NCBI GenBank assembly: GCA_029531795.1
Contig: JAPEIS010000013.1
Coordinates: forward strand, 2,323,211 to 2,387,210
Length of the DNA: 64,000 nt
Direction of reading: 5' to 3'
Source of the DNA: Sclerotinia nivalis
Taxonomy: Eukaryota; Ascomycota; Leotiomycetes; Helotiales; Sclerotiniaceae
Position 1 is the stretch's first letter. The number at the start of each line of letters is the position of its first letter. A program made the position numbers and the translations under genes. The notes below the pieces were generated by a model. That model saw only the letters and a program-made list of their open reading frames with translations, made no database searches and was not told where the DNA came from. Below are positions 3,890-64,000 of the stretch, piece by piece.

Positions 3890-4999
3890 TCATCCGCCCA
3901 AGATGGAGCGTATGGGATACGTCAATGCCTTTGCAATATCCATTACCCATCCTCCCCAACCTCTCATCGTCTCAACTGTATTCAGCAACCTCACAAACCT
4001 TGCGCCAAAGACCTCGAGTTCGATGCAATCATCGGCATAAGCCTCCCATACAGCTTTTTCAATTCCTTCTTTTGATGTTTCCGGCAACAAATTAAATTCA
4101 CCTTCCACTCGAACCTTTGGACCAATAACCAAAGCTCTACCAACTATTCTTGTGTCTGCCATCAGTCTTGTGCCGGCATCTACAACATCTTCCGGTTTGC
4201 CCATCGCTCCACCCGCCAATATTAATCTACCTCCTGCAGGTATCAAAGGTGTATCAATGAAATAGGGACATAACATGTTGACTCGAATACCATTGACAAA
4301 AGCCGTAGATCTCAATGAGCGGAATAATCCCAGGACCCCATGTTTTGCGACTGCGTATTGAATTTGTCCAGGAAAAGGAGCGATAGATGCTACTGATCCA
4401 ATCAATAGTAAATGTCTATCGGGTGTATTTGGACCAGGTGTTGTGGATGGATTGGCTTTTTGTGACCTAGGATTTCGAGGAAGATACCACATAGCCAAAT
4501 GTGCTGTATACATAACTCCAAGTAAATCAACATCAAAGGCCTTAAAGTTCGGCTTGGGTGGTTCCGGTGCATCTAAATTCAAAGGTTCCTGAAAACTCAT
4601 GGGCTCCTCTGCAATTCCCGCATTTGCAACCACAGCGTCAATACCTTTAGATGGACTTAGCTCGGCAGCCGTACGAAAGAAGTCGACTTGTGATTGCCAA
4701 TTCGTAACATCGCAATGTAAATAATGATGGTTTTGATTGCCAGTCTTCTTGCGTACTTCCTCGACCAATGCTTTCCCTCTTGTACTGTTGACGTCTCCAA
4801 TTATGACATTTGCTCCATTCTCTGCCCATTTCCTAAAGAATCCTTCACCAAATCCCGACGCTCCACCCGTTATAATAATCGTTTTTCCTGCTACCCATCC
4901 AGCATCGTATGGACTTGTGGTATCTATTGGGGGTGATTGTCTGATGATATCAACGATATTGTTTCGAGCTGAGTTGGAGGTAGTCATATCGTGAGACAA
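3890..4999 (-). CDS. Short-chain dehydrogenase/reductase (classical SDR)
   Basis: Intronless 369-residue frame from 4999 to a stop at 3890. An alternative start is M5. It has the full classical SDR set: nucleotide-binding TGGASGFG at residues 44-51, D70 after the second strand (VIIGDV; Asp there usually favours NAD), CDVT at 96-99, NAG at 126-128, catalytic S202 in IGSVAS, and Y215-x-x-x-K219 in QYAVAK. A proline-rich loop (~141-195) and a long C-terminal extension after ~260 are typical of fungal 15-hydroxyprostaglandin- or 5'-hydroxyaverantin-dehydrogenase-like SDRs. It should carry out NAD(P)-dependent oxidoreduction of an alcohol or ketone in the cytosol; the substrate cannot be read from sequence. 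All key residues are present and no lesion is visible, in contrast to several neighbours to the right. Confidence 0.9.
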   Translation of the reverse strand: MSHDMTTSNSARNNIVDIIRQSPPIDTTSPYDAGWVAGKTIIITGGASGFGEGFFRKWAENGANVIIGDVNSTRGKALVEEVRKKTGNQNHHYLHCDVTNWQSQVDFFRTAAELSPSKGIDAVVANAGIAEEPMSFQEPLNLDAPEPPKPNFKAFDVDLLGVMYTAHLAMWYLPRNPRSQKANPSTTPGPNTPDRHLLLIGSVASIAPFPGQIQYAVAKHGVLGLFRSLRSTAFVNGIRVNMLCPYFIDTPLIPAGGRLILAGGAMGKPEDVVDAGTRLMADTRIVGRALVIGPKVRVEGEFNLLPETSKEGIEKAVWEAYADDCIELEVFGARFVRLLNTVETMRGWGGWVMDIAKALTYPIRSILGG

Positions 5000-34990: not shown

Positions 34991-35235
34991 ATATTCCTTT
35001 TCATATTGAATCATATTATCTTTTTATATGTTACCCCTTTATATCACATTTGAATGATTCGCCAAGCATTACCGACGGTGAATTCATTTCCGTTGCTAAG
35101 CACGTGCACAAGACAGTGCCTTGAGGCCTTCGATCGCAATATTTTGAATTGAAGCACAACAATAGCAACACACCGGTAACAATATCGAATACATCCCCAA
35201 CAAATCTTCAACAATTTCATCATCGCACCTCCAAA

Positions 35236-38200
35236 ATGTCTTCGTCCTGCTGTAAGGGCAAATTAGGCAACCTAGCAGAGACGTTTGCGACAACGGCGTT
35301 GCAGCTCGTTGAACTCTCTCCTACAATATCAAAGCCAGAGGTTGACGACGACACTTGTTGCGATGTTGATAATTTTGAACCTCTAAAGCAAGCTCAAGCT
35401 TCAAAACCTGTAGAGCATTCAAAGACAGTCAGTCCTTGCGTTGTATGTGATGGCTCTTCGAGCCTCGGGCAGTCTTGCTGTAATGGTGAGTTGGTTCATG
35501 TCAACTGCAAAATTGTTATAACAATACTAATTTTCAAAGAATCCTGCATCATTCGCATTGCAGATCGCGAATGCGATGAATCTTGTGGCTCTCGTGGTGA
35601 CTTTGCGAGCACTTCGACTGCTGACCAGAAGGCATATGGTAAGCCTCAAATCCCCGCTCTTCCATATATTGTTAGCCAACAAAGCATAGATAAGGGAGAT
35701 GATTGCTGTGAAAAATCTAAGCAATCCACAAAAAACAAGAAAGGACCATGCCAAAGTCACATGCAGTCAGCGAAGAGCCGCTTTCAGCCTACTCTCGATG
35801 CTCTCGAATGCATCTGTCGTGCGCTTTTTGCCTTGAACCTCGAATCATGCTGTTTGAAGGTAGAGAATACTCCATGCAAGCCTCGTCGATCTAGTTCCAG
35901 CACTAATAGCCGTTGTCAATCATCTGAAACACCTTTAAAATGTGGTAAAGGTGATGGTTACTGTTGCGTAGCCTCTTCTGATACACACAAAAAGCAATTT
36001 GAACAAGAATGCAACAAAGGTCGTCATTTCACTGCTACGAATTATAGTTGTGATAAATTGACGCTTTCAGGATTGTGTGCCCCATGTGACAAGAAATGCT
36101 GCAGCGAAACATCGGTGTTGGCGATAGCTGGGGTAACATCTAATAATTGCTGCTCTGACGGTTCAGACTCGAAAGAGAGTAGAATTTTACAGGCACCAGC
36201 TCCTGACGTCCAGCTGGATTTGGAGAAAGGTTTCTTGAGTAGGGAGCATGTTGTTCTTAGCATCCAGGGAATGACCTGCACTGGTTGCGAGACGAAGCTT
36301 GAACGTACACTCGCCAACATATCTGGTGTCTCTAAGATCAAAACCAGTCTAGTTTTATCACGAGCAGAGTTTTATTTTAGCTCGGCTCAGATGTCTGTTA
36401 ATGAAGCAGTGGTGCGGCTCCAAAAAGCAACGGGCTTCGAATGCCGGAAACTTACCCAGGAAGGCCATGAGCTAGAGATTCTGTCACCAGGACTTTCGGA
36501 GAATTTGCTTGGAAAATTACCGCCTGGCGTGTTGAGCATTAATCCTACTACTGATGGGACATTCATGATCGCTTACGACCCTCAAATCATTGGAGCTCGA
36601 GACATCGTTGAAAAGGCTTTTGACAAGCAACTCAAATTAGCCCCCAACCGTCCAGATCCATCAATCTCGGCAGGCAACAAGCATGTATGGCAAGTGGGGC
36701 TGGCAACACTCATATCGACATGCCTCACTGTGCCTGTCTTTGTTCTAGCTTGGGCTCCCCTTCCAGAACGAAAAATAATTTACAGCTCTGTGTCATTGGT
36801 ATTAGCAACTATTATTCAAGTATTTATCGCAGGCCCCTTCTATGTCGCAGCCTTGAAAAGTTTGATATTTGCACGAGTTATTGAGATGGATCTTCTTATT
36901 GTTTTAAGTACCAGCGCAGCTTATATTTTCTCGATTATTGCTTTTGCTCTAATGGTTGTAGGCAAGCCCTTGGCCACAGACGAATTCTTCGAGACCAGCA
37001 CTTTATTAGTCACTCTGATTATGCTAGGTAGATTCATCACTGCTTCGGTACGACAAAAGGCCATGCAGTCCATTTCTAGTCGCTCATTACAGCAATCTAC
37101 AGCCATGTTAGTCGAAGGCGATGGAACGGTTACCAAAGAGATCGATGTACGGCTTCTTCAGTATGGTGATATCTTCCGAGTTATGCCTGAAACAAAAGTC
37201 ATCACTGATGGCACTGTCATTTCAGGTGACTCGGAAATTGATGAGTCAATGATTACAGGAGAGTCGAACTTGGTGGCGAAGAGTAAGGGTGCGTCTGCTA
37301 TCGCTGGCTCCATCAATGGTTCGGGTATCTTGCATATTCGATTGACTCGACTTTGCAGTGACAACACTATTAGCGCTATTGCTAATATGGTTGATGAAGC
37401 AAAGCTGTCAAAGCCAAAGACGCAGGATATCGCTGACCGTGTTGCTGGATATTTCGTACCAGTTATTATATTCATCACTATCGTTACCTTTGTTATTTAG
37501 ATCGCTGTGAGTATCGCCAGTCAGAAAAAGAGAAGCTCAGATGCTATTGTCCAGGCAGTTACATATGCTACTGCTGTTATGATTATTTCGTGTCCATGCG
37601 CAATTGGACTTGCTGTGCCTATGGTTATCGTTATTGCTGGAGGTGTTGGTGCAAACAAGGGAGTTATCTTTAGGTCGGCAGATTCTATCGAGGCAGCCAG
37701 AAATGTTACTCATGTTGTGTTCGATAAGACAGGCACGCTGACTATGGGAATCCTGAGCGTCAAAGGGAGTAGTTATTTTGACAGTCAAACAGAAGATGTT
37801 AAGCCAATCTTGCTTGGCCTGGTGTCTGGAATCAAGCATCCTGTTTCTCAAGCGATTACTGAGCACCTAAAATCTCTTGGTGTCTCTCCCACCGCTGTTC
37901 TCGATATAGGGTCTGTCCCAGGGAAGGGCGTTTTGGGTAACTGGAATGGCAACGAAATTCGCGCTGGGAATGTATTATGGACGCAAGCTACTTCCTCATC
38001 GGAGTTACAATAACTTCTTTCTTCCGGCTCAACGGTCATGTGCTTCACCATTAACAACATTCTTCGAGTCGTATACGCACTCAGTGACACTCTGCGCCCA
38101 GAAGCTGCTCAAGTCGTTCTGGATCTTCATTCTAAAGGAGTTTCCACCAGTATTGTCAGTGGTGATGAAGTCGGTGCTGTTAAAAAAACTGCAGAAAGCC

Positions 38201-46397: not shown

Positions 46398-48429
46398 CCA
46401 ACTACACACTTCAATCATATACCTTTACCTTATTCTAGCTCCGTCTCGGCTTCTCATAGATTTTGTCTGTCCTCTGTACCTATTTACCCCGGTCTCGTCC
46501 CTCGTTCACATATAACCGATTGCATTTTATCCCAAGTGACATGTCTTTCCGGTGCCACTCCAGTCGGATATCTTTCCCCTTCGCTTCTCATTGCTGTGTA
46601 TAATTTCACACATCATCGTTTATAAATTTTTGTACCCCGCCAAACAAGGCTGTCTCTTGTTCTCACGAAGACCTATGAGGGTAGGTTACCAAAGACGGAA
46701 CTCCACGTTGAGGCATAGTTCTAGCGAGGCCTAGCTTTAATTTGGGTTAGGGGGTAAGTACCTTTGGCGTAGGGCTAGTTGTGTATTTACTCAATCTGAA
46801 GGACAAGAAGTTCGTATGATCTAGTCATGGCCGGGGTGCTGCAGATAAGCCAAGTAGCTCACACATACCAGAATCATGAATCAAGTAAGGCCACTGGACG
46901 TTCATACGCATGTCGGAGCATATGGATGTTCCTAAATGAGACTCGTGATGTTTATGCCGGGACAGAACCCCTTTTAATCTCTCGTATTATGTGAAATCCC
47001 AGCGCCTAGGTACTCTATAAAGGGCGAGGTTCTAGCTCGATGCTGAGCTCAAGTCCTATTTATCACTGAAATAAGTATTTTCAAGCTGCAAATTGGAAGA
47101 GTCATGTCTTCTTGCAAAGCCCATTATGTTAGGAGGCATCTCTGCTGTAGTTTCGATAAACTCAAGGGACATTCTACCGCCGTCGCCAAATTTTGTTCAT
47201 GGCAACATAATTAACACCGATAGGAGTTTTCCTTATTATATGCTTCAGCGTTTGTAAGGCGGGGTCCATCCCCCAGAGTTAGTTTTCACTTCCCCTACCC
47301 AACTCAAAAGATTGAGTCCATCTCAATTGCTCGAATTATATACTTAGTTAGGCCAATAAACCAGCTTACCTTCATTATATCATCTATTAGGAGTTCGCAA
47401 AAACCTCTAGCCGTTTTAGATAGTCTTAGACTCAGTGTAGACGTTAATTTAATCAATCAATCAACACCGATAGCCACTGGATCGAGCTGAATAGGTAGTC
47501 CGCTGAGGAATTCTTGGGGTATGGTATCAACGCTTCATAATCTATTCACTTAAGCACTTCCTTAGCGATACAAGTTATACTTCATGAATGTTACAACATT
47601 CTCATTCATAATCATGGAATGATCATAGTCTTGGGGAAAATGAAGTTGGAAGCGAAGTCAAAGATACGCATGTCGATCAAATTCCTACCGTTAGATGCGC
47701 ATGATACGTGGTGAACTTTGACGTGCTATTCTGAGGTGTGATAAAAGTTTTCCCGTCAACCTGTCTGCCTCCGCCAATTTCCTGTCCAGTAGCTGACGCA
47801 ATTTTATTATAGATCTCCTATTGCAACCTACATTACCTTCTTCTAGTGCTGGTGGGAGCAACACGTGAGGATTAAAAAGAGTCCGGGATTGGGTACTTCA
47901 ACCCTTAGTTGATTCCAGTGACACATGAGAGATCAGGGGAAGATAGCCTTCGTGTGTTCATAGATCTAGGCTGAGGAATGAATCAAAGTTGCTAGAGATG
48001 CTAGGGATTAAGACCGTGATTGATGAGACGTCTGTATGTGCTCTTTTGACGACGCCAAGTCAAGCTGCTGTGATGAGCCCTTACGAAAAGATTAGACATC
48101 CAATTGGGAACTCCGTTCGGGGAGACTCTCGGGATTTCTAATGGTAGTAATGGCGATGGCATTGCCGAACGGAAGCTCAGGTAACCTAGATAGCTTCGAG
48201 TAGACAAAATCTTAGCTTCTCTTGAAACATTCACAACCCAATCGAAGCTTTATCCCTATAGTGGTCAGTCATGAGTGTCAGGCACAAGGCGGAGTAGCAT
48301 TAGCATGGCGTAATACGCTAAGTGATGTTGTCTCCCGTTTTGGAGTGATTCCTCAAAGTAGAATTCCGCAGGAAGTCATTATACAACACTAAACGTCGCC
48401 TCTATATCGATTGAGGCTGCAGAAACCAA
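46398..48429. other. Gene-poor region
   Basis: No supported gene. Contains copy 2 of the (AATC)n-tailed repeat and one isolated copy (~47075) of the 'TCAAGCTGC' unit described at 41800-43130. Confidence 0.45.
47410..47464 (+). repeat. Dispersed repeat with (AATC)n tail, copy 2
   Basis: TTTTAGATAGTCTTAGACTC followed by AGTGTAGACGTTAATTTAAT and CAATCAATCAAC. It matches the copy at 34313-34368 with few differences, and both are preceded at ~50 bases by CATCTATTA. Confidence 0.6.
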
Positions 48430-51400
48430 TTGAACCAGGTCTTGTTGCTCTAGCTAGTCACCTCATTGAGAAATCGTCAAGTTCGGGTTGATGGTTTGAG
48501 TCAAGCTCCACCTTGACCGCGGGTGCGCTTCATGAAATGACTTGGATTTGATCGTAGATGATTCTCTCCTCAGGCCTACCGGCTTCAATGCCTTTTTAGT
48601 GCCATCTCTGCCTCATTCACTAGGGTAATCATCGAGAAATCGTCAAGTGATCATTCTCCTCCTCGGGACAATGCGAAACATTTCCGAGAAGGAAGCACTG
48701 ATTGTAGAGGAAAGAGTTATTTTAAGCGACTTTCGCGAGGTTGAGAATGCTTGAGTCATATGCTTCTTGGTCATTGTGGGCGTTTTGGGGGAGTTCAAAT
48801 TTGGGGGAAATGGAGTTGGCGGGAACAATGAACAGCGAACTTCAACGTTTCGCAACGATGAAGAGAGTTAATGATAGCAAATTCGGTCCAAATGTGTTTC
48901 AGTAGATATGGGGCCCCCAGAGTATGATTTTCGCCATGATTGCTCTCCGCGTTTGGAAATTTAGTTTCGACGGGAATGGTCCGTCACAGATGGGCGAGCG
49001 CAGACTTCAAGGCTGAGCCAGTTATGCGTTCAAGGATAGGCTCTACCAAGCTCTCGAGCACTCTGAGCCACTACTATGCAGTGGTAATGACCATACTGAG
49101 CTGTTCCATGAATTTCAATCTCGACGATTCTGCAAGAACTTCGAGGTCTGGCTCCGACGCGTCCTCTCAAAGTCAAAACTATGGACTGAGAATTGCTTTT
49201 AGAGAATCTTGGAGGACTCGATGCTCCCGTAGTGTTGTTTCTTCATCGCTGAAATGTCTTTGAGGAACTTGGCTCTGTGAGGTTTGAGCTTTGGCAGGGG
49301 AGAGAATTCCGAACTTCACGATATCTCGATAACTAGTAAGGCTAAGAGAATAAAAACTGGAGCATACAGCTTCTGAAAGGTTCTAAAGCTTCCATAGAGT
49401 GTTGTATTAAGATCAGACAACATTGAGAAATTTCGATGCTGAGGAATAGAGGTCACCGGGAGCGGGGAAAATCGCGAACCTTATGACGTCAAAACGACGA
49501 CGATAGATATACCGATTTGGGCAGGTTTATATCAAATCTAGAGATCATATTTCACTACAGTGTGTTTCAAAATCAATGCATGACGTGATTTGAGAATTCC
49601 GAATTCTGAACGAAACGTCCCGGACTAGGCACGCGAGCACCCACCCTTTGATTATAGGACGACGACGAGAGATAAAACGATTCATTTAAGTGTTAAGTAA
49701 ATCCGAAGGTCTTGGCATCCTCCAGCGCAACTTAAACCTATTGCTCGACGTCATTTCAGAAATCCGAATCCTGAACGAATCGTGTCGAATCAGGTACGAG
49801 GGCACCCACCGGATGATTTTGAGACGACGGTAGGGACTATAAAGATGGCAATTAATAAGTTCCAATTCTCTAGCCTTCTAGACCTTCCACATAGCTCGTT
49901 ACATGGATTGTGGTGACTTTCAGAGAATCGATTCCTGGAAGATTTGGGTCCAGATCAGGACGAATTGCACTGACTTCACGATTCTAGGATGAGGACGGAC
50001 GGTAAAGAAGCGCGAACTAGTGTATATGAAGCATCAAGTCCGTGGTATCTTCCACGGGGTCTCCTATTTGAAGTAAGTCGTCATTCCAAGAATCAAGTTC
50101 TGCGAGATTGGGGTCACAGTTTGGGATGTCTTTACGTTTCCCCTGAACCCGGGACGACGACAATAGGAATAGTCACCAGAATATTACTTGATGAGTCGCA
50201 TAGGTCAGATTATCTCCAGGGAAGATTTAAGTACTTCATTCGCTGGTCCCAAAACGAAGTAGGATTTGGTGAGAATTCAGGTGCGGGGCAAGGGAGCGAT
50301 TCAAACTTGAGAATTACCCGACGAGAATAGGTAGAAGAGTAAATTTTAGATTTTAGTAAATCTGGTATGTACCAGACCATCAGAAACGTGTTCGCTTGGT
50401 TGCTAAACGTGATCTCAGAAAGTTCATTCCGTGCCAGATCCAACCATGAGGGGTTTGAGCACCCACTCGATGATTCCTTCATAATGATGATACCTATGAT
50501 GATGAAGAAGTGCTACAACAATCCCTGCAACTGAGGAGACCTTCCAAGTAGTATTATCTTTGCTTTGTGACGTCATTTGTGAAAATCGAATTTGGACCAG
50601 ATTCGGTCTCGCGCAGAGGTTTGAGCACCCACTTGATGATATCTCTACGATGATGATAGTTATGAATTGGAGGCAGTGTGATAAATGATTCTATAACTCA
50701 ACAAATCCTCCACGTAGTATTACCTTTGCTGTGGGATGTTATTTGAGGAAGTTACTTTTGGACCAGGTTGAATCTTGGTGGGGGGATAGGCACCGACTTG
50801 ATGATTTCTTGACAATGGAGAAAGTTATGAGGACATGGCATACATTTATATGAAGCTGAAGATAATAGAACCCTCCAAATATAATTACTTTCAATGCCAG
50901 AAGTTGTTTGAGAACTTTGAGTCCCATCAGGTCAAATCTACCAGCGGGGTAAAGCACCCACTTGATGATTTCTCGACGACGAGGAAAGCTATTAAGGTAG
51001 CGTATAGGTTTTAAAGACTCCACAAGTAGTCATACCCTTGGACGAGGATTACTTTCGCTATATCGATTCGTGTGGGGAATTGAATGTTCGTGTTAATGGC
51101 ATCTCACCAAGGTATATGAGCGGTGACTTGTTAAATTCTCGACGAGTAGACGAGCTGTGGCATTAAAAGTTTGCCGATACAAAGCTTTATGACCTTATGA
51201 CACTCTACACCATTTTCAAGCGAAGTCTAGAGGGCATCTAGGGAACATAACTCCTCAAGCAATGGTTTCTCCCAAGGAAGTTGAGCAACCACTTTATGAT
51301 TTTGCCACGATGAAGCTACCTATGCTTCACTTCTCTACCTCAATCTATTTTTACTAATCACTGTACCTCTCATGAAAAGTCAATCTGTCTCCCGGGATTC

Positions 51401-51680
51401 TTTCCAAGTAATTATGTCGTGAGAAGATGTTGAGCCAGGGTGAATTGAGCACCCCCACCTTGATTTCTTCATGAAAACACGACCGCCACCAGTGAAATTA
51501 ATTATGGTAAGCTATAGATACTATAGTATCTCTGGATACTATTTTTATCTTCATTGAAATTCATTTGGGAGTGATAAAGTTTGAGTAGTGCCATGGTAAG
51601 TGAAGTCGCAATAAGTGAGCACCCACTTGGCAATTACTCCACGACGAGTTGAGGTATAATAATAAATTTTGGCTCACAAG
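48430..51680. repeat. ~165-bp diverged tandem (satellite-like) array
   Basis: The marker GAGCACCCACTTGATGAT (with variants) followed by TCNCGACGACGA occurs at about 49635, 49800, 49967, 50130, 50294, 50457, 50623, 50788, 50952, 51118, 51283, 51447 and 51617. Neighbouring copies are 162-170 bases apart. Earlier GAGAAATCGTCAA at 48468 and 48634 shows the same 166-base step with a different phrase. Other parts of the unit (CCTCCAAGTAGTATTACC, TTTGGACCAGGTT) recur only in the better-preserved copies at 50.4-51.0 kb. There is no coding frame across units. Confidence 0.85.
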
Positions 51681-52150
51681 ATTTCTAGAATAATCGATAG
51701 ACTCAGGGATATAGTTTCCCTTCTACGAAGATTTATCTTGAGTATTATAGCTTCGATTAATGACATCCCCCGCAATCACCTCTGCGATATGTACGTCTCT
51801 AAACCCTTAATTCAGGTAAATCTACTCGGAGATTGTGGAGAATTAAATTCTATTACTTACACAACCATGAGGTATAAGATTCTAATCGCCTTCATGAAGT
51901 CCGATGTCGATTCCGTGGTCGCACTTCGCTCTCCTGACATCTACTTGTTATTTGCGGACTTCCTACACCGATTTCAATCATTTCCTACCTGCTCCAGACA
52001 TAATAAAAGCTCCATTAACCTACAGATAGTATCTCAAATCATCAATCCATCTAGTTCATCTCCCACTAGGACCTGGGGGTCTGCGTGAGTATGTCACGTG
52101 ACATCTCTGTTTTCTCCTCCCTGGTATAACTGTTCCTAGACCAAATTACA

Positions 52151-54140
52151 AAATTTAAAGACCAGTTTGGGACTCCTCAAAGTATTTCGAGTCGATCCAT
52201 CTTACTAGATTTCTAAGGATATCTGGAGTCTGTGTTATAAACACGGGTGAAGTCCCCACCCCCTAAATCTCCTACTATTTGACGAATACTCATTTCTAGA
52301 CGATTTCTGGAAATTTGGAGACCAGTTAGGATAGCCTGGACATATTTAAAGTGTTCTTACCACTTTGGTCTATCTCTATTACTATTCCCGTATGTTATAA
52401 ACACGCATGAATAATTCAATCATTTATTCACATGTGTTTATAACATGAACGGCTAGAATGGTATCTTTGGGAATACATCTGATTGACTATAATGAGTGCT
52501 CTGTATATGAAACTAGTCTTCGAATTTCAATATTCAAGTTTGTTTCTTTGTTGTGAATTTCTACGCTGACGCTGATATTTACCACTTGACTATACCGGAA
52601 TACCAAAGAGGATATCGCAAATTCGAACACCAGTTCCTATGAAACTAAAATAGTAGTAAAGCATCCACAATTATCATTTTCATTCAGAATATTCGCCGCA
52701 TGTTATAAACACAGATGAAGAATCATTCCTTTTACACTTATGTGTTTATAACACAGGGCAATTACTCTCACATAAACCAAGTTATCTGATTGATTTGAAA
52801 ATATACTCTGATACATGTAACTGGTCTTCGATTTCCCACAAACCAGCCGGTTCCTTTTTCGTCGATTTACGTGGTAAGTAACAAAAGACTAATTTAACCA
52901 CAACATAATAACTAAAGGTAAATCAAGAATTTGAAGACCAGTTCTATATCTAAGGACTAATTTCAATTGATTTGGCTTAATTGGTTTTCTTTAGGAAGCT
53001 CCACCGCATGTTATAATCATGATATTCATCTACCACCAAAAACACTAATTCGTGTTTATAACATGGAGGAAGCATTTCTACACAAATATAATCCAGCCAT
53101 TCCGTTTTAATGACTCTTTTGTATGTATAACTGGTTTTTGATTTTCCTAAAATGCGCTAGTTCTTTCATATTCATTTTCTAGGAGAATCCTCCATTTCGG
53201 GCTTTTCACGTCAACGAACAACAATGATTAAATCAAGAATTCGAAGACCAGTTCCATTATTATGAAACTAGCTTCAATATCCGAGTGTATTTAGAAATGT
53301 CTCGGATGTTACGGAAGTATGTTTAAACAACAGCAATGGAAATGACCTAAAACACCAACTTGTGTTTATAACATGGGGAGAGCATTATCACACCTAAGCA
53401 ATTATTGTCTGCGCTTTCTCTTAATCTTCTGTATATGGAACTGGTCTTTAAATTTTCTTAAATGCTCTTGTTCTTTCATAGAAAAATTTTAGCATAATCC
53501 TCGATTTCAAGCTTTTGGCTACAACACAGGACCAGACATAAATCAAGGATTTGAAGATCAGTTCGGATAGTTTCAGAGTAGTTAGAATACTATGGTGAAG
53601 TTTTTATATCACCGGATCCCTCGCAGTTATGTTTAAACATGAGCAGTAGAATTGACCTTAAACTTACATTGTGTTTATAACACGGAGGAAACATTACCAC
53701 AACGAACCAACTTATGATAACCATTTTCTCAGTTGCGTTACCTACTGAACTGGTCTTCGAATTCTTTGGAATAAGCTAGTTCTTTTATATTTATTTCCCC
53801 TCCTATTTGATAATTTCCTCCTTCTTACAGTACATGAGAATTATGACTTAAATCAAAATTCGAAAACCAGTTCCAATATAAGAAAACTTATCCTAATCAT
53901 GATGTGAAGTTAGATTTTTATCCCTATGAACGTGGCATGTTATAATAATGGGGGTCGAAAGTGGCCCAATGTTTGAAGCTGATTATGTAATGGCGGGGAA
54001 GCTCTCATATTTGAGTGATAGCTGGAAACCACTTTGTAGATGCTTTTATATATATAACTGGTCTTTGAATTCTTTCGGGGGCCTTTGAAAAGCTTTTGAT
54101 GTGAGATAGGGTGATTTTGCGGGTAATGATCAGAACACCA
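52151..54140. repeat. ~309-bp dyad-symmetric tandem array, block 1
   Basis: Each unit has, in order, AATTYGAAGACCAGTTCC, then ~85 bp later TGTTATAAACA, ~40 bp later TGTTTATAACA, and ~90 bp later GGAACTGGTCTTCGAATT. First-motif starts are about 52151, 52311, 52619, 52927, 53237, 53547, 53857 and a degraded one near 54127. After the first half-step (160) the spacing is 308-310 bases until the last. Spacer DNA between motifs shows little similarity from unit to unit. Confidence 0.9.
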
Positions 54141-54999
54141 GTTTAGAACAATGAGAATTATTTGGAACTGAGGCGGAGTATATCCAAAATACTAAGTTTC
54201 CCTAGAGTAATTGATCCCTCAGCTCAGATTTTTGATTGGACCTTTGGTTCTGAAATTAGATATGTGTATGGTTGGTGATGGGGGTAATCTGCCCTTAAGC
54301 GATCATGGACAGGCTTAAGTATCTCCAGTGAGCTTATATTGTATCACTGTAAATGAAATTACTCCCGATCAGTTTACAAAATGAACCATAGTCTTAGATT
54401 ATGAATTAGATATTCTGTTCATAAGGTACGGTCTTGCATCTGCGGGTTATGATGGTAGAGCTAGCGACGAGTAGAATTTATGTTTATAGCAACGAGATTA
54501 CAATTCTGCAGGACCTCAGTTAAGCCAAAACGTTTTGAATTACTCAAGGAGTACGGAACTGGTCTTGGATTTGTTGTTAGACCTTTCATTTTGAAGTAGT
54601 CGGTGGGTAGTCGTGGTGTTGGGTCGCGCAAAGTCTCGAAAGCGACGAACAATTGAAGATCGATATCCAACCGTCTAATTCAAGCTTTAACCGGCTCAAA
54701 ATGATTGTATGGGTTCTTGAACTGATTTGATGCACTAGAGATATAAAGGCATAGACTTCCAGTTCGAGAAAATATGAGGTTGGGTGGTCGAAATGAATGA
54801 GGTACTGGACAACGAATAACTTAAGAACCAATAAACTAAATAGAGTTATTAATGGGTAAAAATGATTGAGTCATGTAAGATATCTTGTGAAAGCAGTGCA
54901 TATAATAATTAGATGGTTTCATTACCTGGTGAGATGGTTGTATGCCATTCACTAGTTGAGGTACTCGACAACCATAAACCCGAGATGTAAGCTTTCTAC
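54141..54999. other. Transition between repeat blocks
   Basis: No gene and no clear copy of either array motif. Minus-strand frames at 54461-54831 are short and motif-free. Confidence 0.4.
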
Positions 55000-56120
55000 T
55001 TAGACTCCGACCGGGTCAAAATGATAAGAATTAATCTACGACTCAATTGAGATTATCATATATTGTATGTGACAATTGTTGGTGGTGAATCATGGTGGAC
55101 ATGGCTGTCCCCCGCCAAATTGATTAACATTACCACCATCACCACAATGGGAGAGCTGCTACTTTCAACTCTGACTGATAAAGCTTGGTTGGGATAAGAA
55201 TATGACTCAGTCTCAATCTTCATCCACTGTATGCGACAATTATTGGTGGTGGGTAAAGGTGGACTTGTGTGTTCCCACGCAGTTGATTCATAGCACCATC
55301 GACATCACAACAAGTAAGCTGCTTTTTTTAACTCTGACCGCACTAGATTAATGATATTACTGACAAAGCGTGTGGTAGGCATACATTTATAAGTTAGGAG
55401 GTACCGTCATTGCGTGTGAGTAATTGAATGGTTACGAGCAATGAAGGCATCGAACAGAACAGATTAGAAGTAATATGACCCTGGAGAATAAGCCAAGTAC
55501 ATTAAAAGATCCGCAAGAGCTACATAATGAATTAGGGGTTTGTTTCATTCTTCTGGCTGTGGTTGTACTGATGGGGAGGGTGTGATTCTGAAGTCCCACG
55601 ACAAATTTGACCACACACTTCATCATTAATCAACGACAATGATAGTTATGACGATGATAGATATGCTGATGAGAAGTAGTCCGTTCTGATTATGGAGGCT
55701 TTCTAACCTTCAAACATACCTCATGTCTGCCCCAAGATGACGTGCGTGAAGTTTCTTCGCTAACGGAATAGATTTCACCATGGGAATAGATTACGTTCTT
55801 CATCACCACTCGATGACGAAGAAGCCTATAATGATCGAGACTACTTTGATTTGATGCCAAAAGGCTGCTCATCTCCCGTAGTACTTCATATTTGCTGTTC
55901 CATGACATGCATGAAATTTCAATTCTGACAAGATAACGGTCATCGGGGGGCATGAATTACGTTCTTAATCGTTACGAGACGACCATGATTACTATGATGA
56001 CCAGAACTACCTTCATAGTGTCCCAAAACATGGCGCATCCTCCGCGATACATTCCCCTTGGCCTATGATGACATCAGTGAAATTTGGAATTCAGCTCAAT
56101 GGAAGTGAATGGGAGCACCT
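55000..56120. repeat. ~165-bp array, second block (diverged)
   Basis: TGTGACAATTGTTGGTGG (~55070) and TGCGACAATTATTGGTGG (~55237) are ~167 bases apart. ATTACGTTCTT at 55790 and 55956 is 166 apart, with ACACTTCATCATTAATCAACGAC (shortened) one step before. The ACGA/ACGACNATGAT tail after each phrase links this block to the array at 48.4-51.7 kb. Confidence 0.7.
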
Positions 56121-57239
56121 CAAAGTCTGCGCTGGGCGTTACAGACCATACAGAAAGAAACTGAGTCTACAGACCTAATTGGAATACTAATCTTACCCTT
56201 GGGTAAGGTCCATATTCATCTCAGCTCCTACTTGTGTTTTGCATGCAGGTCGTCGCTCGAGGGAAGTCACCAAAGGAACACTTCAACACTATGTCTTAAC
56301 AATGATAGCTGGAAGTAAAGAAGCTATTGGATTCGATTTGCAAAGTGAAGATCATTCTCTGAATATGTTTTTTACCTGTGAATATCCAATGGTGCTGAAA
56401 TGCGACCGTGGGGAGTGTCTTGGTCATTTTGTGCTGCAAGGCCCCCCCCCCCCCACCACAACTTCACCACCAATGATTCTTGACGTTCAATAAACTACTC
56501 CGAACCTTTCCCAGATCCCTAGTGAGGCATCCCTTGGTCCTCAAATTGAATTAGATCGCTCGTAATTGAGTAGCCATGTCGCATCCGCCCCGTGTCGCTG
56601 GACCACCCCCACCATCAATTCAATTGATCTAGGCATCTGTAATCATTTAAACACTGGAGATCTTCTCTAGATAGTTATATAAAGCAATGAGAATTAATTA
56701 CGTCCATAATAGTTGTTGTTTCATTCGTGTGGAATGGTTTTGGTTGTGTTGGGTTCGTTTTGGTGGCAAGGTCAATGAAATCTGCGAATCAAGCTTTCCA
56801 CGCTACACTTTTGACAAAACTGAATTGACCATTTGTTAAAAAATTCTCTCTTCTATCCATAGCTGCTCTTAAAGTAATGAACTTCACAAATTTTATGTTT
56901 GGCGCTAGTGGCCAGGTGTGTTTTTTCTTTCGACGAGATAAATTAATGTTCGAATATGATAGTTCCAACGCGCGGGTTATGATCTACAGAAAAAATAAAA
57001 TGGTTCTGTATGTTTTGTTTTGTCTTCAGTGCTTTAGTTCGTGCTCTAATGTGGTCCGAACCTCGTCGTCCCCGCTTAGGACTAGGTGACTGGCCGCATG
57101 TATTCAGACATCAGGTATGGGGCTTCCCACAGTCATGTATGAATTCTTCAATCAGAATGGAGTATATTAGCTTAGATGAACTACCCCAGAAAAGTATTAG
57201 TTCGTGTGATACCCCTCTTCATCCACCATGACCAGAGTC
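56121..57239. other. Spacer between arrays, no gene seen
   Basis: Contains a 13-base C run at 56442-56454 and otherwise short frames only. Confidence 0.4.
56442..56454 (+). repeat. Homopolymer C(13)
   Basis: Thirteen consecutive C, the longest GC homopolymer in the window. Confidence 0.95.
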
Positions 57240-60200
57240 TTCAGAGCTGTTTATAACAACAACAATCAAGTCCGGCAGTAAACCAAATAAGCCATTTGAA
57301 GTGGCAGTTCGTGCGTAACACTGAACTAGTCTCAGAATGATGAAGAATGATCTTGATCTCTATGAACAGTTACTGAAGTACCTCAGAATGGTTCGCAAAT
57401 CAGATACTTATTCGTTGAATAAGAATATGAAAATTCGAAGACTAGTTCCATATATATGAGCTCATTTGGAGTATATCTCATCAAAGAAGCAAAGTCGTAG
57501 GTATGATGGTTGTTGTTATAAACACGTTGGAACATTTGTATGGTGGGGACTAAGTCGTGTTTATAACAATGAGCGACTATGGTGTGGCTGAGTTGAGTAT
57601 ACCATTTTGATCCGCTAGTTTTGTTACATATGGAACTGGTTCTCAATTTTGCGTTGGTTCTTTCATTCTAGACATGTTCTTCATTAGGTTGGCTCAAGGT
57701 TCCGTGGTAATTATCTATTTACGCTCCCAGGAAGAATGTGGAAATTCGAAGACCAGTCCCATGTACAGAATTCTTGTACCATTTCATGTCTTTAATTAAA
57801 TTAGTCATCGGTTTAGCCCTCCATGTTATAAACAGAATTGAAATTAAGGTCGAAATTTCAGACATGTTTAAAACATGATTAGGAACATTGGTATTCATTT
57901 AAAACTACAGCATTCTACTTCATCTTCCGTCAAGTATATGGAACCGGTCTTCGAATTCCTAGAAATGACCTTACTGTTCAATTAGTCTTCACCCAGCTAA
58001 GGCTTATTTGCTTGCATATTCATTATTTATTTTTGAAATTGAGATATAGAAATTCGGAGACCAGTTCAAAATATCCTAGATAAAAATGAATGATTTGGGT
58101 CGAACAGTTAATCCTCAACTTTACCCCGTCATGTTATAAACACGGATTTGTGTTTGTGTGGGAAACGTTCAATCGTGTTTATAACAGGGCCGGAGATTAC
58201 TGTAACTTAACGAACTACATCATCAAAATCAGTGACCCGTGTACTATATGAAACTGGTCTTCGAATTGTTTAGAAATGTTTTAATCTGGAGACATTTTAT
58301 TCCCCGCTTTCTCCTCCTTCTATTAGATTTCCACAACATCAATCATGAATAGAATTCGGTAATTCCAATACCGTTTCCTAAAGTATCACAGTTTTTAAAA
58401 TCGATCTCAGTCGATAGAAGTTTAAAAATTTGACCGGAACCATGTTCTAAACTTATGTCCAAAAACAGGCATTTTCGGGAACGTGTTTATAACATGGACG
58501 AGAATGACTGGGGTGTACATGGCTAGATGGTTTTAATCAGAATTTTATGCTGTATGTAGAACTGGTCTTCAATTTTAAATGTGATGTTCTTGGTAAAGAG
58601 TAGTGCGCTGGCGGAAAATTTTCACCTCCCAGCTGATCTTGATATATCCTAATTGAGGGGGAAATCGGAAATTTGAGAACTAGTTCCATATATTACATGT
58701 AAATCTAAATGGAATGCCCCTACTGGCTTTATAATGTCTTGTGTCATTCGTGTTATAAACAACTAGCGTGGAAATGGTACATTCTTGTCCCCAGTTTATA
58801 ACAACGACGATAAGCTCTTACATAATCACAGATACGTAAATCAGTAAGGTATCTTCTTCCATTTATATAACTGGTGTTCGAATTTTGTCTACTATCCCAT
58901 AGCCGAAGAAGAGCTTTACAGCTTTACTCCTGTCAAACTAGCTAAACCCCACAATGAAATCCCGCGGCATCTCGAGAGAGTTTCAAGGCCGGTTCCTAAG
59001 TATATAAGCCATTTGAAATTGGATGCAAAGTTTAGAAACATGAATAGTCTCATGGTTCGTGTTATAAACCTATCGGTATAGTTTGGTAAATAATTGGAGG
59101 ATGTTTATAACATGGCGGGGTAAAGTTGACATTAGAATACTTTCGCTAAGTGTTTTAAACGTCCGTGCTCTATATGGAACTAGTCTTCGAATTTTGATTT
59201 GGACTCCCAGAGTTGGTGCAGCACAGAATCCTCTTTGAGGCCATTTCTGGCTAAAATCAATTTTTAATCACAGGGATAAGTTCTTGGAATTTGGGTAGCA
59301 GTTCCAATTATTTAGATCAAATTTAAGTATATTACACTATTTAGATGAAGCAGACTACGTTGGGAACCATGTTTTAAACATTTAAGTCTAAAACAGGTCA
59401 ATCTAGATGCGTGTTTATAACATGGCGGAGAGTGTATCACGGAAAAGAAAACCTGTCATAGTATATGGGTAATGCTGTTGTATATGGAACTGGTCTTTAA
59501 ATTTCCGTATCATTGTCGCTGCCAAATTTTCCGGCTTACCGTATGAGTTTAGAATCGGTCAGACCGAGAGATTAAATTAACTACATAAGATTTCAAAATT
59601 TGAAGACCAGTTCCATATACAAGTGGGTTCCAGGGTCTTGGGGGTATAACTCCAGTATTGTGATAACTTGTGGTTGATGTTATAAATATATAAACGCCTT
59701 TTGCGGGTGAAATTGGAGAGCTGTTTATAACAACAATCATAATAGCTGAGGATAATTCCTTGGACGAAAAGTTTCTAAATTACGTCTTATATATGTAACT
59801 GGTCTTCATTTTTTGATATTATTCTCGGAAAAGGTTTACTGGCTCGCCGCCGTGAGGTATATACAAGCCCCACGGTTTCGGCCAGGGAACCACTCAATAT
59901 ATATCACGAATGAGTAAAATATAAGACCGGTTCCGTATATAACTTATTCAGGGGCTCAGCTCCATATACTTTCCTTCTTCAACAAAATGGTAGAAAATGT
60001 TATAAACAGGGTTGAGTATTCTCCCACCAAATATGTTGTCGTGTTTATAACAACAACCATGATAATTGAGAATAATCCGCTGGACCAAAGTTCTTTATTT
60101 GATGCATCATATATATAACTGGTCTTATTTTCGTTGATTTGTTTGTTGTTTTGAAGTTACTCTATGAAGCCATGGTGAGAATGGGTGGAGATAAATTCTT

Positions 60201-60360
60201 GTAAAATCCAAAGACTATTTATGGCAATTAGAAGGCCAGTTATATATATAATGGCACTTTCAGAGTATACTAGCTTATTCAGATAATTTGATATATCGTT
60301 GGTTCATGTTATAAACACATGAAACTTTATCGTGACCAAGGGATGGGTTGGCATAAAACA
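57240..60360. repeat. ~309-bp dyad-symmetric tandem array, block 2
   Basis: Same unit as block 1. Starts of the AATTCGAAGACCAGTTCC-type motif are 57431, 57742, 58050, 58360, 58669, 58978, 59287, 59596, 59917 and 60225. Steps are 311, 308, 310, 309, 309, 309, 309, 321 and 308. In the unit at 57431 the inner arms are 57514-57524 and 57559-57569 and the outer right arm starts at 57632. Inner and outer pairs share the same centre (~57541). A second centre falls midway to the next unit (~57696), so dyads repeat about every 155 bp. Inner arms are kept in nearly every unit, while loops and spacers differ. Confidence 0.92.
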
Positions 60361-62019
60361 TTATTAACGCAACTTGATGAGGCCGCATTCTTGCCTAGGG
60401 TATAGTAGGAACTTTAGGGTCTCATGATCTGGCATTTTATTTAGCGAATTCGGATCATGAAATGAGTACCTGGGCAACTGGAGGATTCACTAGGCACTAT
60501 GCAGCCTGAAATATCTTATGGGGGCAGGTATCAATCAAACAAAGCGCAGATTCTAGTATTTGTACACATCTGTAATGATTCTACTTCATTAAAATGGTGT
60601 CGCGATAATTTGCTGTTGTTGTAAATGAGGTGAAATGTTTGAGTGGTGGAACTTGAAAGTGGTTTCGGGAAATGGGAACGAACTTCGCGATAAATCGAAA
60701 CATAGATTCATGTTCCTTAAAGATTGATTACCAGGATCCGCGCTTATTCAATAGAATCTGGCAGATTTTGTTGTGGTGTGGGCTTCAAGGATTTCCAGTC
60801 GCCTCTCATGACTAGGTCAGTCGCACAAGACCAATGAATAGGCAGTAAAAGTCTCAGTTACAAGTTCTTCAGTGCTTGCAAGATTCGGTAGATTAGTTTC
60901 CAAGTCATCGGAGGACATATAATTAATGTACACAGCGACAGTTCGAAGGTGAGGTAGTGAAACGCGGTGACCCCGCGAATTGAAGAGCGCCGGCGAGGAT
61001 GAAACAACAACGAATCTCATTGGAATGGGTATTGGCCGTATGGATTGCAGGAGATTGTCAATCGTATAATAATATATGTTTAAATCTGGCCTTTTCGCTA
61101 TTTCCGTCGTTGCGCGCATCTGGGGAGGCTGCTTGACAGGTTTGCCATAGCCCCGCACAAGTCAATTGCGCCAACTTACTTACCATTTCTACTCATGAAA
61201 TTTTTGATTCAATCATTTTTAACTATCATTTTGCAGCTTTAAATCACTCGTCCACATATTCCAGCAGGCGTGGTAGAGTCACAGCTTAAGTTGAACGTTC
61301 TATGGCGGGCTTAGTCAGCACACTGATCTCCCACCAAATGAACCCCCAACATTTCATTCTCTTAGATCTCATAGAACTTCCTACTGAATTCTTATATATC
61401 CATCAAAAGTGTAATGGACTGTGTATATGGATGTATGGATGTTTGAAATTGTTCCCAAGTGCTGCACGGAAAAGCTACTGGGCGTGATATATGACCATTA
61501 CAATCGTGTTGCATCAGGACTAGTCGTTACTGGAAGACAAACAATCATCCTTAATACTTTTAATCTATTTGAGAATCAATATTTTAATGTCTAAACATCT
61601 CAAAGTTCTTCACATTAGTCATTCTAAGTGATGACAGTCTTCTGTCACGTGACTACCCCTCACCCTCGTCCTTGTTTGTCTTCGTGATGTTTCATTCGTG
61701 CGCTACAACATCAGCAATGTCCTTGCTATGGTTTCCAGTATACCTTCAAGTTTTTCTAAGCTCAGGTAAGTCCAAAGCATAATCTAAGTATGATTTTAGC
61801 TGCCTTAGCACCCAGGGATGTGGATGGCTGGATGAGGGGCAGCACGCTTTAAAGCAAATTCATGAGAAATGTCGCATTTTAAAATTAATTGATCTTAGGA
61901 AGTGAAATTCATTTGATGGATTTGGTTCAGAAGGTGGGGAGTAGTCCCCGTCGAAGAAAATCACCCCGAATTGCCTCGAACTACTCAATCAACCACAACC
62001 GCTTCTAAGGAATTAAAAA
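60361..62019. other. Gap in the array, no gene confidently seen
   Basis: The 309-bp pattern breaks abruptly after 60320. A 113-codon minus-strand frame (60817-61158, LPHLRTVAVYINYMSSDD) has a natural look but no recognisable family and no supporting exons. Confidence 0.4.
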
Positions 62020-62975
62020 ATCAGTTCCTAGGAGAATTTAATGTTTTAAAACTGGATCTTCTATTGCTTTTTTATCTAATTGCTTCCTCCATCGTATAAT
62101 CATCAATTTATATTTCGCATGTTTTTCAACAATGTTTATAACATTAACCAGTAATTATTTAGTAACTTCTAATACCGTCAAAAATTATATTTAAGCTTGT
62201 TATATATGGAACCGGTCTTTGAATTCTTTTATTTTGCTCATAGGTGGCTGTAGCTGATGACCGGAGGGGGTGGACTTGCTAGTATTAAAGATTGAATCAT
62301 TATTATTGAAATTGAAGACTAGTCCCAATAATCTGAAGGTAAATGAAAGGATTTGGCCAATCTAGAATAGTTTCATAATGTCTTGTCTGTGTTATAAACA
62401 CGATGTTAGGTTTGGCGGGGAAATCCTAGTTCATGTTTATAACATGGGTGGAACATTCCCACAAAATTCCAGCTCGGCCAGTTGAATTTAAATGCGGGGT
62501 TGTATATATAACTGGTTCTCAATTTTATGGTTTGGACTTAGAATTGATTTGTAATGGTCGTGAAGATCTAGGCATAAAATAGCCATGTTAGTGGTCGAAG
62601 AATTATTGCTTTTGAAGGAATTCCAGACTATGTGGGGTAATTTCTGTAAGTTTAACATCAATCCATTTAATGGAAGTTTGTATAATGAGGTACAAAGAAA
62701 TCATACTTTCTCCGAAGATGTTTAAAACATAGTTACGCTATATAGATACTTCTTTTGATGATTGCACCTTATTTTATCGACATTCTAATATATGAAACTA
62801 GTTCTTGAATTGTTGATTTAGATGCACAAATAATGTTGTAACCATAACACCGTTTTTGATACTAGCTATAGTCAGGAATGTTTAAAACATGATTGCTAAA
62901 GATATTTGAATTGTCTAACGATTTAATTCATCTACAGATTAGTCAATAACATTGTAACTGGTCTTAAAATTTCCG
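62020..62975. repeat. ~309-bp array, decayed remnants
   Basis: TGTTTATAACATTAACC (~62114), TATATGGAACCGGTCTTTGAATTC (shortened; ~62203), GAAATTGAAGACTAGTCCC (~62309), TGTGTTATAAACACG (~62390), CATGTTTATAACATGG (~62434), ATATATAACTGGTTCTC (~62505), TATATGAAACTAGTTCTTG (~62790) and GTTTAAAACAT (62719, 62880) keep the motif order of the main array, with more changes and some missing arms. Confidence 0.8.
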
Positions 62976-63894: not shown

Positions 63895-64000
63895 TAGGGT
63901 TAGGGTTAGGGTTAGGGTTAGGGTTAGGGTTAGGGTTAGGGTTAGGGTTAGGGTTAGGGTTAGGGTTAGGGTTAGGGTTAGGGTTAGGGTTAGGGTTAGG
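63895..64000 (+). repeat. Telomere repeat (TTAGGG)n, chromosome right end
   Basis: About 17.5 perfect TTAGGG units run to the last base with no interruption or variant. The G-rich strand points outward (5' to 3' towards the window end), as required for a right-hand chromosome end. Confidence 0.99.

What the first reader, a model, noticed from the sequence alone, without database searches (positions are those of the whole stretch)
52151..62975. A ~309-bp subtelomeric satellite built from two interleaved dyads whose motifs outlive the DNA between them
Across about 17 units in three blocks the order is AATTCGAAGACCAGTTCC, TGTTATAAACA, TGTTTATAACA, GGAACTGGTCTTCGAATT. Spacing is 308-311 bases in nearly all steps. 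Inner and outer arm pairs share one centre, and a second centre lies half a period on, so symmetry points recur every ~155 bp. Spacers and loops have diverged so far that I cannot align them by eye, yet the arms remain. That is the opposite of neutral decay of a tandem repeat and suggests the arms are, or were until recently, protein-binding or hairpin-forming sites. ATAAACA within the inner arm also fits the forkhead (RTAAAYA) consensus, which is a guess at the binder.
Basis: partly seen in the sequence, partly recalled or inferred. Interest (0 to 1): 0.93.

Follow-up and report, generated by a model that had tools for sequence, protein, structure and literature searches.

The report
One-locus array of spaced DNA-site pairs
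Near one chromosome end of a fungus of the Sclerotinia family, about forty copies of a pair of short DNA motifs keep an almost exact distance from each other while the DNA between them has mutated nearly beyond recognition, which suggests that proteins bind, or until recently bound, those motifs for a purpose still unknown.

Summary
I placed 39 half-units, each an inner arm (TGTTTATAACA), a 62-64 bp spacer (63 in 28 of 39) and an outer arm (GGAACTGGTCTTCGAATT). They mostly alternate in orientation, so dyad centres recur about every 155 bp. Arms carry 1.2-1.4 bits per position, spacers 0.22. Spacer identity (35%) is near shuffled (28%). Likeness falls with distance clearly in the outer gaps and marginally in the spacers, not in the arms. 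Spacer length is more constant than neutral simulations allow.

Two parts of the interpretation change. It is not a general subtelomeric satellite: whole-genome pattern searches find a cluster only at the right end of C13, and 25 other sampled ends gave no hit. Arms do not covary within units, so hairpin selection is not supported; forkhead is a weak guess (27 of 39 fit, while 37 of 39 keep the other half-site AACA).

Neighbouring DNA holds other old repeats of about 160-166 bp. Best reading: an old, private, cis-acting array of paired protein-binding sites at nucleosome-like spacing, kept by selection on sites and distance. Binder and function are unknown, and no related genome was available to test conservation.

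The parts
52152..54572 (.). Block 1: 13 half-units, 12 in the order RRFRFRFRFRFR plus a separate one at 54481-54572
57248..60317 (.). Block 2: 20 half-units in strict alternation
62011..62971 (.). Block 3: 6 half-units in the order RFRFFF
52620..52834 (.). A representative complete unit: outer 52620-52637, inner 52701-52711, inner 52743-52753, outer 52817-52834; centre 52727; next second centre 52881
53970..54071 (+). Decayed half-unit: outer arm at 54054-54071, inner arm lost or shifted; not among the 39
48415..51762 (.). Neighbouring diverged repeat family A, period about 165 bp: weak minus-strand units 48415-48486 and 48615-48659, 14 plus-strand units 49455-51762
55628..56101 (+). Three family A units inside the gap between blocks 1 and 2
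   Evidence: found by a model built only from the 48-52 kb units; confirmed in a second round
54560..55640 (.). A third diverged periodic tract, about 159-164 bp
63895..64000 (+). TTAGGG telomere repeats at the contig end

Best explanation
An old, single-locus, cis-acting array of paired protein-binding sites. SHOWN: each half-unit is an inner and an outer site 63 +/- 1 bp apart; half-units mostly alternate in orientation, so dyads recur about every 155 bp; sites stay near a consensus whatever their distance, while the DNA between them has diverged almost to saturation and keeps mainly the likeness that local duplication leaves. INFERRED: one protein reads the near-palindrome TGTT-N3-AACA and a second protein, or another part of the same complex, reads the outer site centred on AACTGGTC; both must sit at a fixed distance and helical phase, and together they set an ordered chromatin block with a repeat of about 155 bp. 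SPECULATIVE: the block organises or marks this one chromosome end (boundary, tether, loop anchor, partition or pairing site). The constraint may have ended recently, since some half-units are decayed.
For: Column information 1.43 and 1.23 bits in arms against 0.22 in spacers and 0.14 in outer gaps. Spacer lengths 62/63/64 in 2/28/9 of 39; no simulation of 4000 per rate at 0.02-0.1 indels per substitution kept 28 or more unchanged. Outer-gap likeness falls with distance (p 0.0005 and below 1 in 2000), spacer likeness marginally (p 0.064 and 0.041), arm likeness does not (p 0.24-0.73). Arms do not covary within units, so each seems to be recognised as duplex DNA. The two large deviations of the outer gap are +11 and -10 bp, about one helical turn. 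The composite module occurs 17 times in the genome, all in the array.
Against: No binding data and no second genome. The array is absent from the other ends sampled. Family A next door keeps its 165-bp period at 43% identity with less sharp motifs, so a low indel rate could be a local mutational property. The CG in the outer arm is intact in only 13 of 39. The 10-bp phase expected of positioned nucleosomes is not significant (p 0.06 in spacers, 0.24 in outer gaps). Two one-turn shifts are few.
Confidence: 0.55

Rival explanations
1. Transcriptional array: each half-unit is a promoter-like module (inner site upstream, T/A-rich TATATAT next to the outer site), driving non-coding or small RNA outward from one centre and convergently at the other.
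For: A TATATAT-like stretch lies directly before the outer arm (64-73% majority letters at five of the last six spacer columns); fixed distance fits promoter architecture.
Against: The gap between convergent outer arms is only about 93 bp; no gene or Rfam family found there. No RNA data.
Confidence: 0.12
2. Neutral decay of a satellite in a region where indels are rare; the arms look kept because units were found by them.
For: Family A keeps its period while decaying too; the locus is not at other sampled ends.
Against: Anchoring on one arm predicts the other in 33 of 34 and 20 of 22 sites; blocks are contiguous, so units were placed by phase as well as by match; arm and spacer information differ about sixfold at the same age.
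Confidence: 0.12
3. Arms are kept as hairpin or cruciform stems.
For: Inverted arrangement of both arm pairs around one centre.
Against: Arms of one unit are no more complementary than arms of different units (p 1.0, 0.21, 0.35; 16 units each); no fold predicted for the half-unit alignment; outer arms are about 180 bp apart.
Confidence: 0.05
4. Arms are homogenised by short-tract gene conversion rather than by selection.
For: Tandem arrangement; outer gaps show local duplication (up to 0.74 identity).
Against: Arm likeness does not depend on distance, and conversion tracts would carry flanks with them.
Confidence: 0.04
5. CRISPR-like store of unique, constant-length spacers between repeats.
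For: Constant-length, nearly unique spacers between repeated motifs.
Against: Neighbouring spacers and gaps share descent (up to 0.68 and 0.74); a 651-bp piece of block 2 matches only itself in the genome.
Confidence: 0.01

Closest known systems
Primate alpha-satellite with CENP-B box or pJalpha motif (review PMC8122249, passages seen)
   Same: Nucleosome-length repeats with a short protein-binding motif; dyad symmetries are reported for various satellites.
   Different: Here two motifs at fixed distance, mirrored within each unit; spacers near saturation; one locus in the genome; no link to a centromere was tested.
Macro-dyad satellites of Tribolium madens (PMC13081366, abstract and outline)
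   Same: Satellite arrays in inverted arrangement.
   Different: There symmetry spans tens of kilobases of abundant satellite; here it lies within each 309-bp unit of a single-copy locus.
Recombination enhancer of yeast chromosome III (PMC6736312 abstract; PMC3320585 and PMC13144730 listing and start of abstract)
   Same: A unique cis-acting element on one chromosome arm, linked to a forkhead protein and to chromosome architecture. Works-like analogy only.
   Different: No homology tested; the forkhead pattern is not the best description of the inner arm; no mating-type link here.
Nematode pairing centres (listing and start of PMC9908027's abstract; the chromosome-specific motif arrays are recalled)
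   Same: Logic of a chromosome-specific motif array near one end.
   Different: No binder, no meiotic data; other ends not shown to carry their own codes.

Membership tests
General subtelomeric satellite | Present at several chromosome ends | tested here: not met
   No second cluster in whole-genome pattern searches; no profile hit in 25 sampled ends, of 35 other ends of the 18 largest contigs. Ten ends were not sampled by sequence.
General subtelomeric satellite | Tandem units near a telomere | tested here: met
   About 1 to 12 kb from the TTAGGG repeats
CENP-B-box type satellite | Short motif better kept than the rest of the repeat | tested here: met
CENP-B-box type satellite | Bound by CENP-B or a relative; centromeric | not testable with these tools
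   No binding or chromatin data
Hairpin or cruciform element | Compensatory changes between arms of one unit | tested here: not met
Forkhead site array | RTAAAYA kept as the core of the constraint | tested here: inconclusive
   27 of 39 fit, 37 of 39 keep AACA
CRISPR-like array | Unrelated spacers | tested here: not met
   Residual spacer homology
Recombination enhancer or pairing centre | Acts on pairing, recombination or arm architecture | not testable with these tools
   No functional data

The most novel reading that the evidence does not exclude
A chromosome-specific identity or partition element of a fungus: a private two-site code written about forty times at one end of one chromosome, read as ordered chromatin and used to tether, pair, segregate or drive that chromosome, in logic like a nematode pairing centre or a satellite-based drive element.
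Probability: 0.12. Interest if true: 0.88.

Novelty: new variant of a known kind. Interest (0 to 1): 0.66.

Why it matters
Tandem repeats usually stay alike or decay together. Here a repeat has lost nearly all its sequence except two site types and the distance between them, so the array itself reads out which bases and which spacing matter. That makes the function of a satellite-like locus directly testable: the probe is known, the locus is unique and can be removed, and natural spacing variants exist in it.

Tried and rejected
Rejected with evidence: hairpin selection; RNA genes (one search gave one hit, a microRNA family at 52679-52776, 27 bits against a gathering score of 100, E 0.096, taken as chance); tRNA genes (bacterial code); coding repeats (ten of 51 stop-to-stop frames of at least 75 aa tested, no Pfam domain; array steps are not all multiples of three); depletion of the inner motif elsewhere (33 exact copies outside the array against 39-53 expected from Markov models of an 84-kb sample; the reversed control, 143, has a different word content); viral relatives (47 stretches of viral contigs with one match each, judged chance for 17 fixed bases). 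RIP: no strong signature. TA/AT is 0.69-0.71 in the non-309 blocks and 0.87 in the 309 blocks, against 0.68-0.77 elsewhere in the window before 48.3 kb and 0.93-0.94 in three AT-rich ends; CpG observed/expected is 0.72-0.91. A past contribution of RIP to the 309 blocks is not excluded.

Inconclusive: a 10-bp GC phase (best period there was 16.0 in spacers); the rotation test is not used because shared descent breaks its null. A bacterial promoter and terminator scan says nothing for a fungus. One-turn shift of the lost inner arm near 53970: seen, too weak to count.

Papers: searches showed no description of such an array among the 15, 9, 15, 10, 10 and 20 papers listed; the library holds open papers only, and on motif letters listed 20 of 1,133, none of those 20 with the inner motif. 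sought fungal nucleosome repeat lengths, 58 pairing centres, 76 the recombination enhancer. Seen: passages of PMC4938642, PMC8122249, PMC7463522; abstract and outline of PMC13081366 and PMC6736312; of others the search listing and start of abstract. No fungal repeat length was read in a paper; a range of about 154-170 bp is recalled. The likeness of the outer arm to a Myb site is recalled.

Full report
SETTING. The window is C13:2323211-2387210, the right end of a 2,387,210-bp contig in an assembly of 50.3 Mb and 31 contigs, and it ends in TTAGGG repeats. A short-chain dehydrogenase frame at 3890-4996 has its best named hits in Sclerotiniaceae: 91% to Sclerotinia sclerotiorum, 90% to Ciborinia camelliae, 85-86% to three Monilinia species, so the host is very likely a member of that family. 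The last recognised gene before the array is a metal P-type ATPase: Pfam domains in the frame at 35149-37500; two following frames to 38646 look like its continuation but were not tested. From 38.6 kb to the telomere, ten of 51 frames of at least 75 aa were tested and none had a Pfam domain.

OBSERVATION. Both motif types are far above chance. The natural repeat is a half-unit: inner arm TGTTTATAACA, spacer, outer arm GGAACTGGTCTTCGAATT. I placed 39, 20 in one orientation (F) and 19 in the other (R). Block 2 holds 20 in strict alternation, block 1 holds 12 (RRFRFRFRFRFR) plus one at 54481, block 3 six (RFRFFF). Inner and outer pairs share a centre within 0.5 bp in 16 of 16 complete units, and the second centre lies half a period on. 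Spacers are 63 bp in 28 of 39, 64 in 9, 62 in 2. Inner-inner starts are 41-44 bp apart. Outer-outer starts across the second centre are 110-112 bp in 14 of 16, with one 122 and one 101, about one helical turn either way.

CONSERVATION. Mean column information is 1.43 bits (inner), 1.23 (outer), 0.22 (spacer), 0.19 (loop side) and 0.14 (outer gap); shuffled spacers give 0.004 +/- 0.006. Spacers are thus not random but close to it: 35% identity over 741 pairs against 28% for shuffled spacers. The bias of finding units by their arms was checked by anchoring on one arm only: 33 of 34 inner sites predict an outer arm, mean mismatch falls from about 13 to 5 at offset +74, and 20 of 22 outer sites predict an inner arm. 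Outer gaps are more alike between neighbours (Mantel p 0.0005 in F, none of 2000 permutations in R); spacers only marginally so (p 0.064 and 0.041); arms are not (p 0.24 to 0.73). This fits descent plus constraint on the arms better than gene conversion.

LENGTH. From spacer identity I estimate about 0.8 substitutions per site per lineage. With 0.02 to 0.1 indels per substitution, 16 to 3 of 39 spacers should have kept their length on average; 28 did, and none of 4000 simulations per rate reached that. The star tree, indel ratios and indel sizes are assumptions. The weak point is family A next door, which keeps its period (162-166 bp in 12 of 13 steps, one of 178) at 43% mean pairwise identity, so either it is constrained too or indels are rare here.

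MECHANISM TESTS. Arms of one unit are no more complementary than arms of different units (p 1.0 inner, 0.21 and 0.35 outer), and no fold is predicted for the half-unit alignment. That speaks for recognition of each arm as duplex DNA. The inner arm is a near-palindrome TGTT-N3-AACA; the half facing the outer arm is kept in 37 of 39, the TGTT half in 30, the forkhead pattern TRTTTAY in 27. The outer arm is strongest at AAC and GG; an AACNG core is present in 31 of 39, which resembles a Myb-type site from memory only. The CG in the outer arm is intact in 13 of 39.

UNIQUENESS. The outer arm with up to 3 mismatches has 90 matches in the assembly, 22 of them in the array, the rest scattered (reversed control 47). 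The exact inner arm has 58, of which 25 are in the array. The composite module has 17, all in the array (reversed control 4). A 651-bp piece of block 2 and a 671-bp piece of family A match only themselves. Family A's motif clusters only here as well. Of the 36 ends of the 18 largest contigs, 25 others were sampled over 3-10 kb and none gave a profile hit to either family at E up to 1; that all 18 are complete chromosomes was not checked, and ten ends and the smaller contigs were not sampled. Twenty of the 25 samples have GC of 0.32 or less, while blocks of this tract have 0.33-0.43. Some other ends carry periodic repeats of other kinds.

NEIGHBOURHOOD. From about 48.4 kb to the array lies another diverged repeat (family A, about 165 bp), with weak minus-strand units at 48415-48486 and 48615-48659 and plus-strand units from 48.85 kb on. 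Three of its units lie in the gap between blocks 1 and 2 and were found by a model built without them. A third periodic tract (about 159-164 bp) fills 54.56-55.64 kb. The region is a mosaic of old repeats with similar, nucleosome-like periods; the 309-bp array is the clearest because its conservation is concentrated in two sharp sites.

CONCLUSION. Selection on paired sites and their distance is well supported within this one array; function is open. The claim of a general subtelomeric satellite fails, hairpins are disfavoured, forkhead is unproven.

Noticed in passing
48415-51762 and 55628-56101: Family A: a second, unrelated-looking diverged repeat of about 165 bp, with an orientation switch near 48.66-48.85 kb, also found only at this locus.
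   Followed up: partly
54560-55640 and 56100-57250: Further periodic tracts of about 159-166 bp with GGTGGTG / CACCACC motifs in both orientations.
   Followed up: no
52152-62971: Inner arms are better kept in the telomere-facing orientation: 15 of 20 exact in F against 10 of 19 in R (read); mean identity of distant pairs 0.96 against 0.82.
   Followed up: no
53320, 53630, 57865, 59370, 62719, 62879 (inner arms): Six inner arms of the TGTTTAAAACA / TGTTTAAACA type all have 64-bp spacers, so site variant and spacer length go together; a subfamily or a coupled change.
   Followed up: no
52509-52637 compared with 59795-59917 and 62208-62309: The only two large changes of the outer gap are +11 and -10 bp, about one turn of DNA.
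   Followed up: partly
47377-47464 and L039:8969-9055: An 88-bp stretch 83% identical between this subtelomere and the right end of C3.
   Followed up: no
L037 and L041: Right end of C1 and left end of C5 are 96% identical over 7.7 kb, AT-rich and repeat-rich.
   Followed up: no
L039, roughly its last 4 kb: A 129-bp periodic tract (43 codons), possibly a coding repeat; not examined.
   Followed up: no
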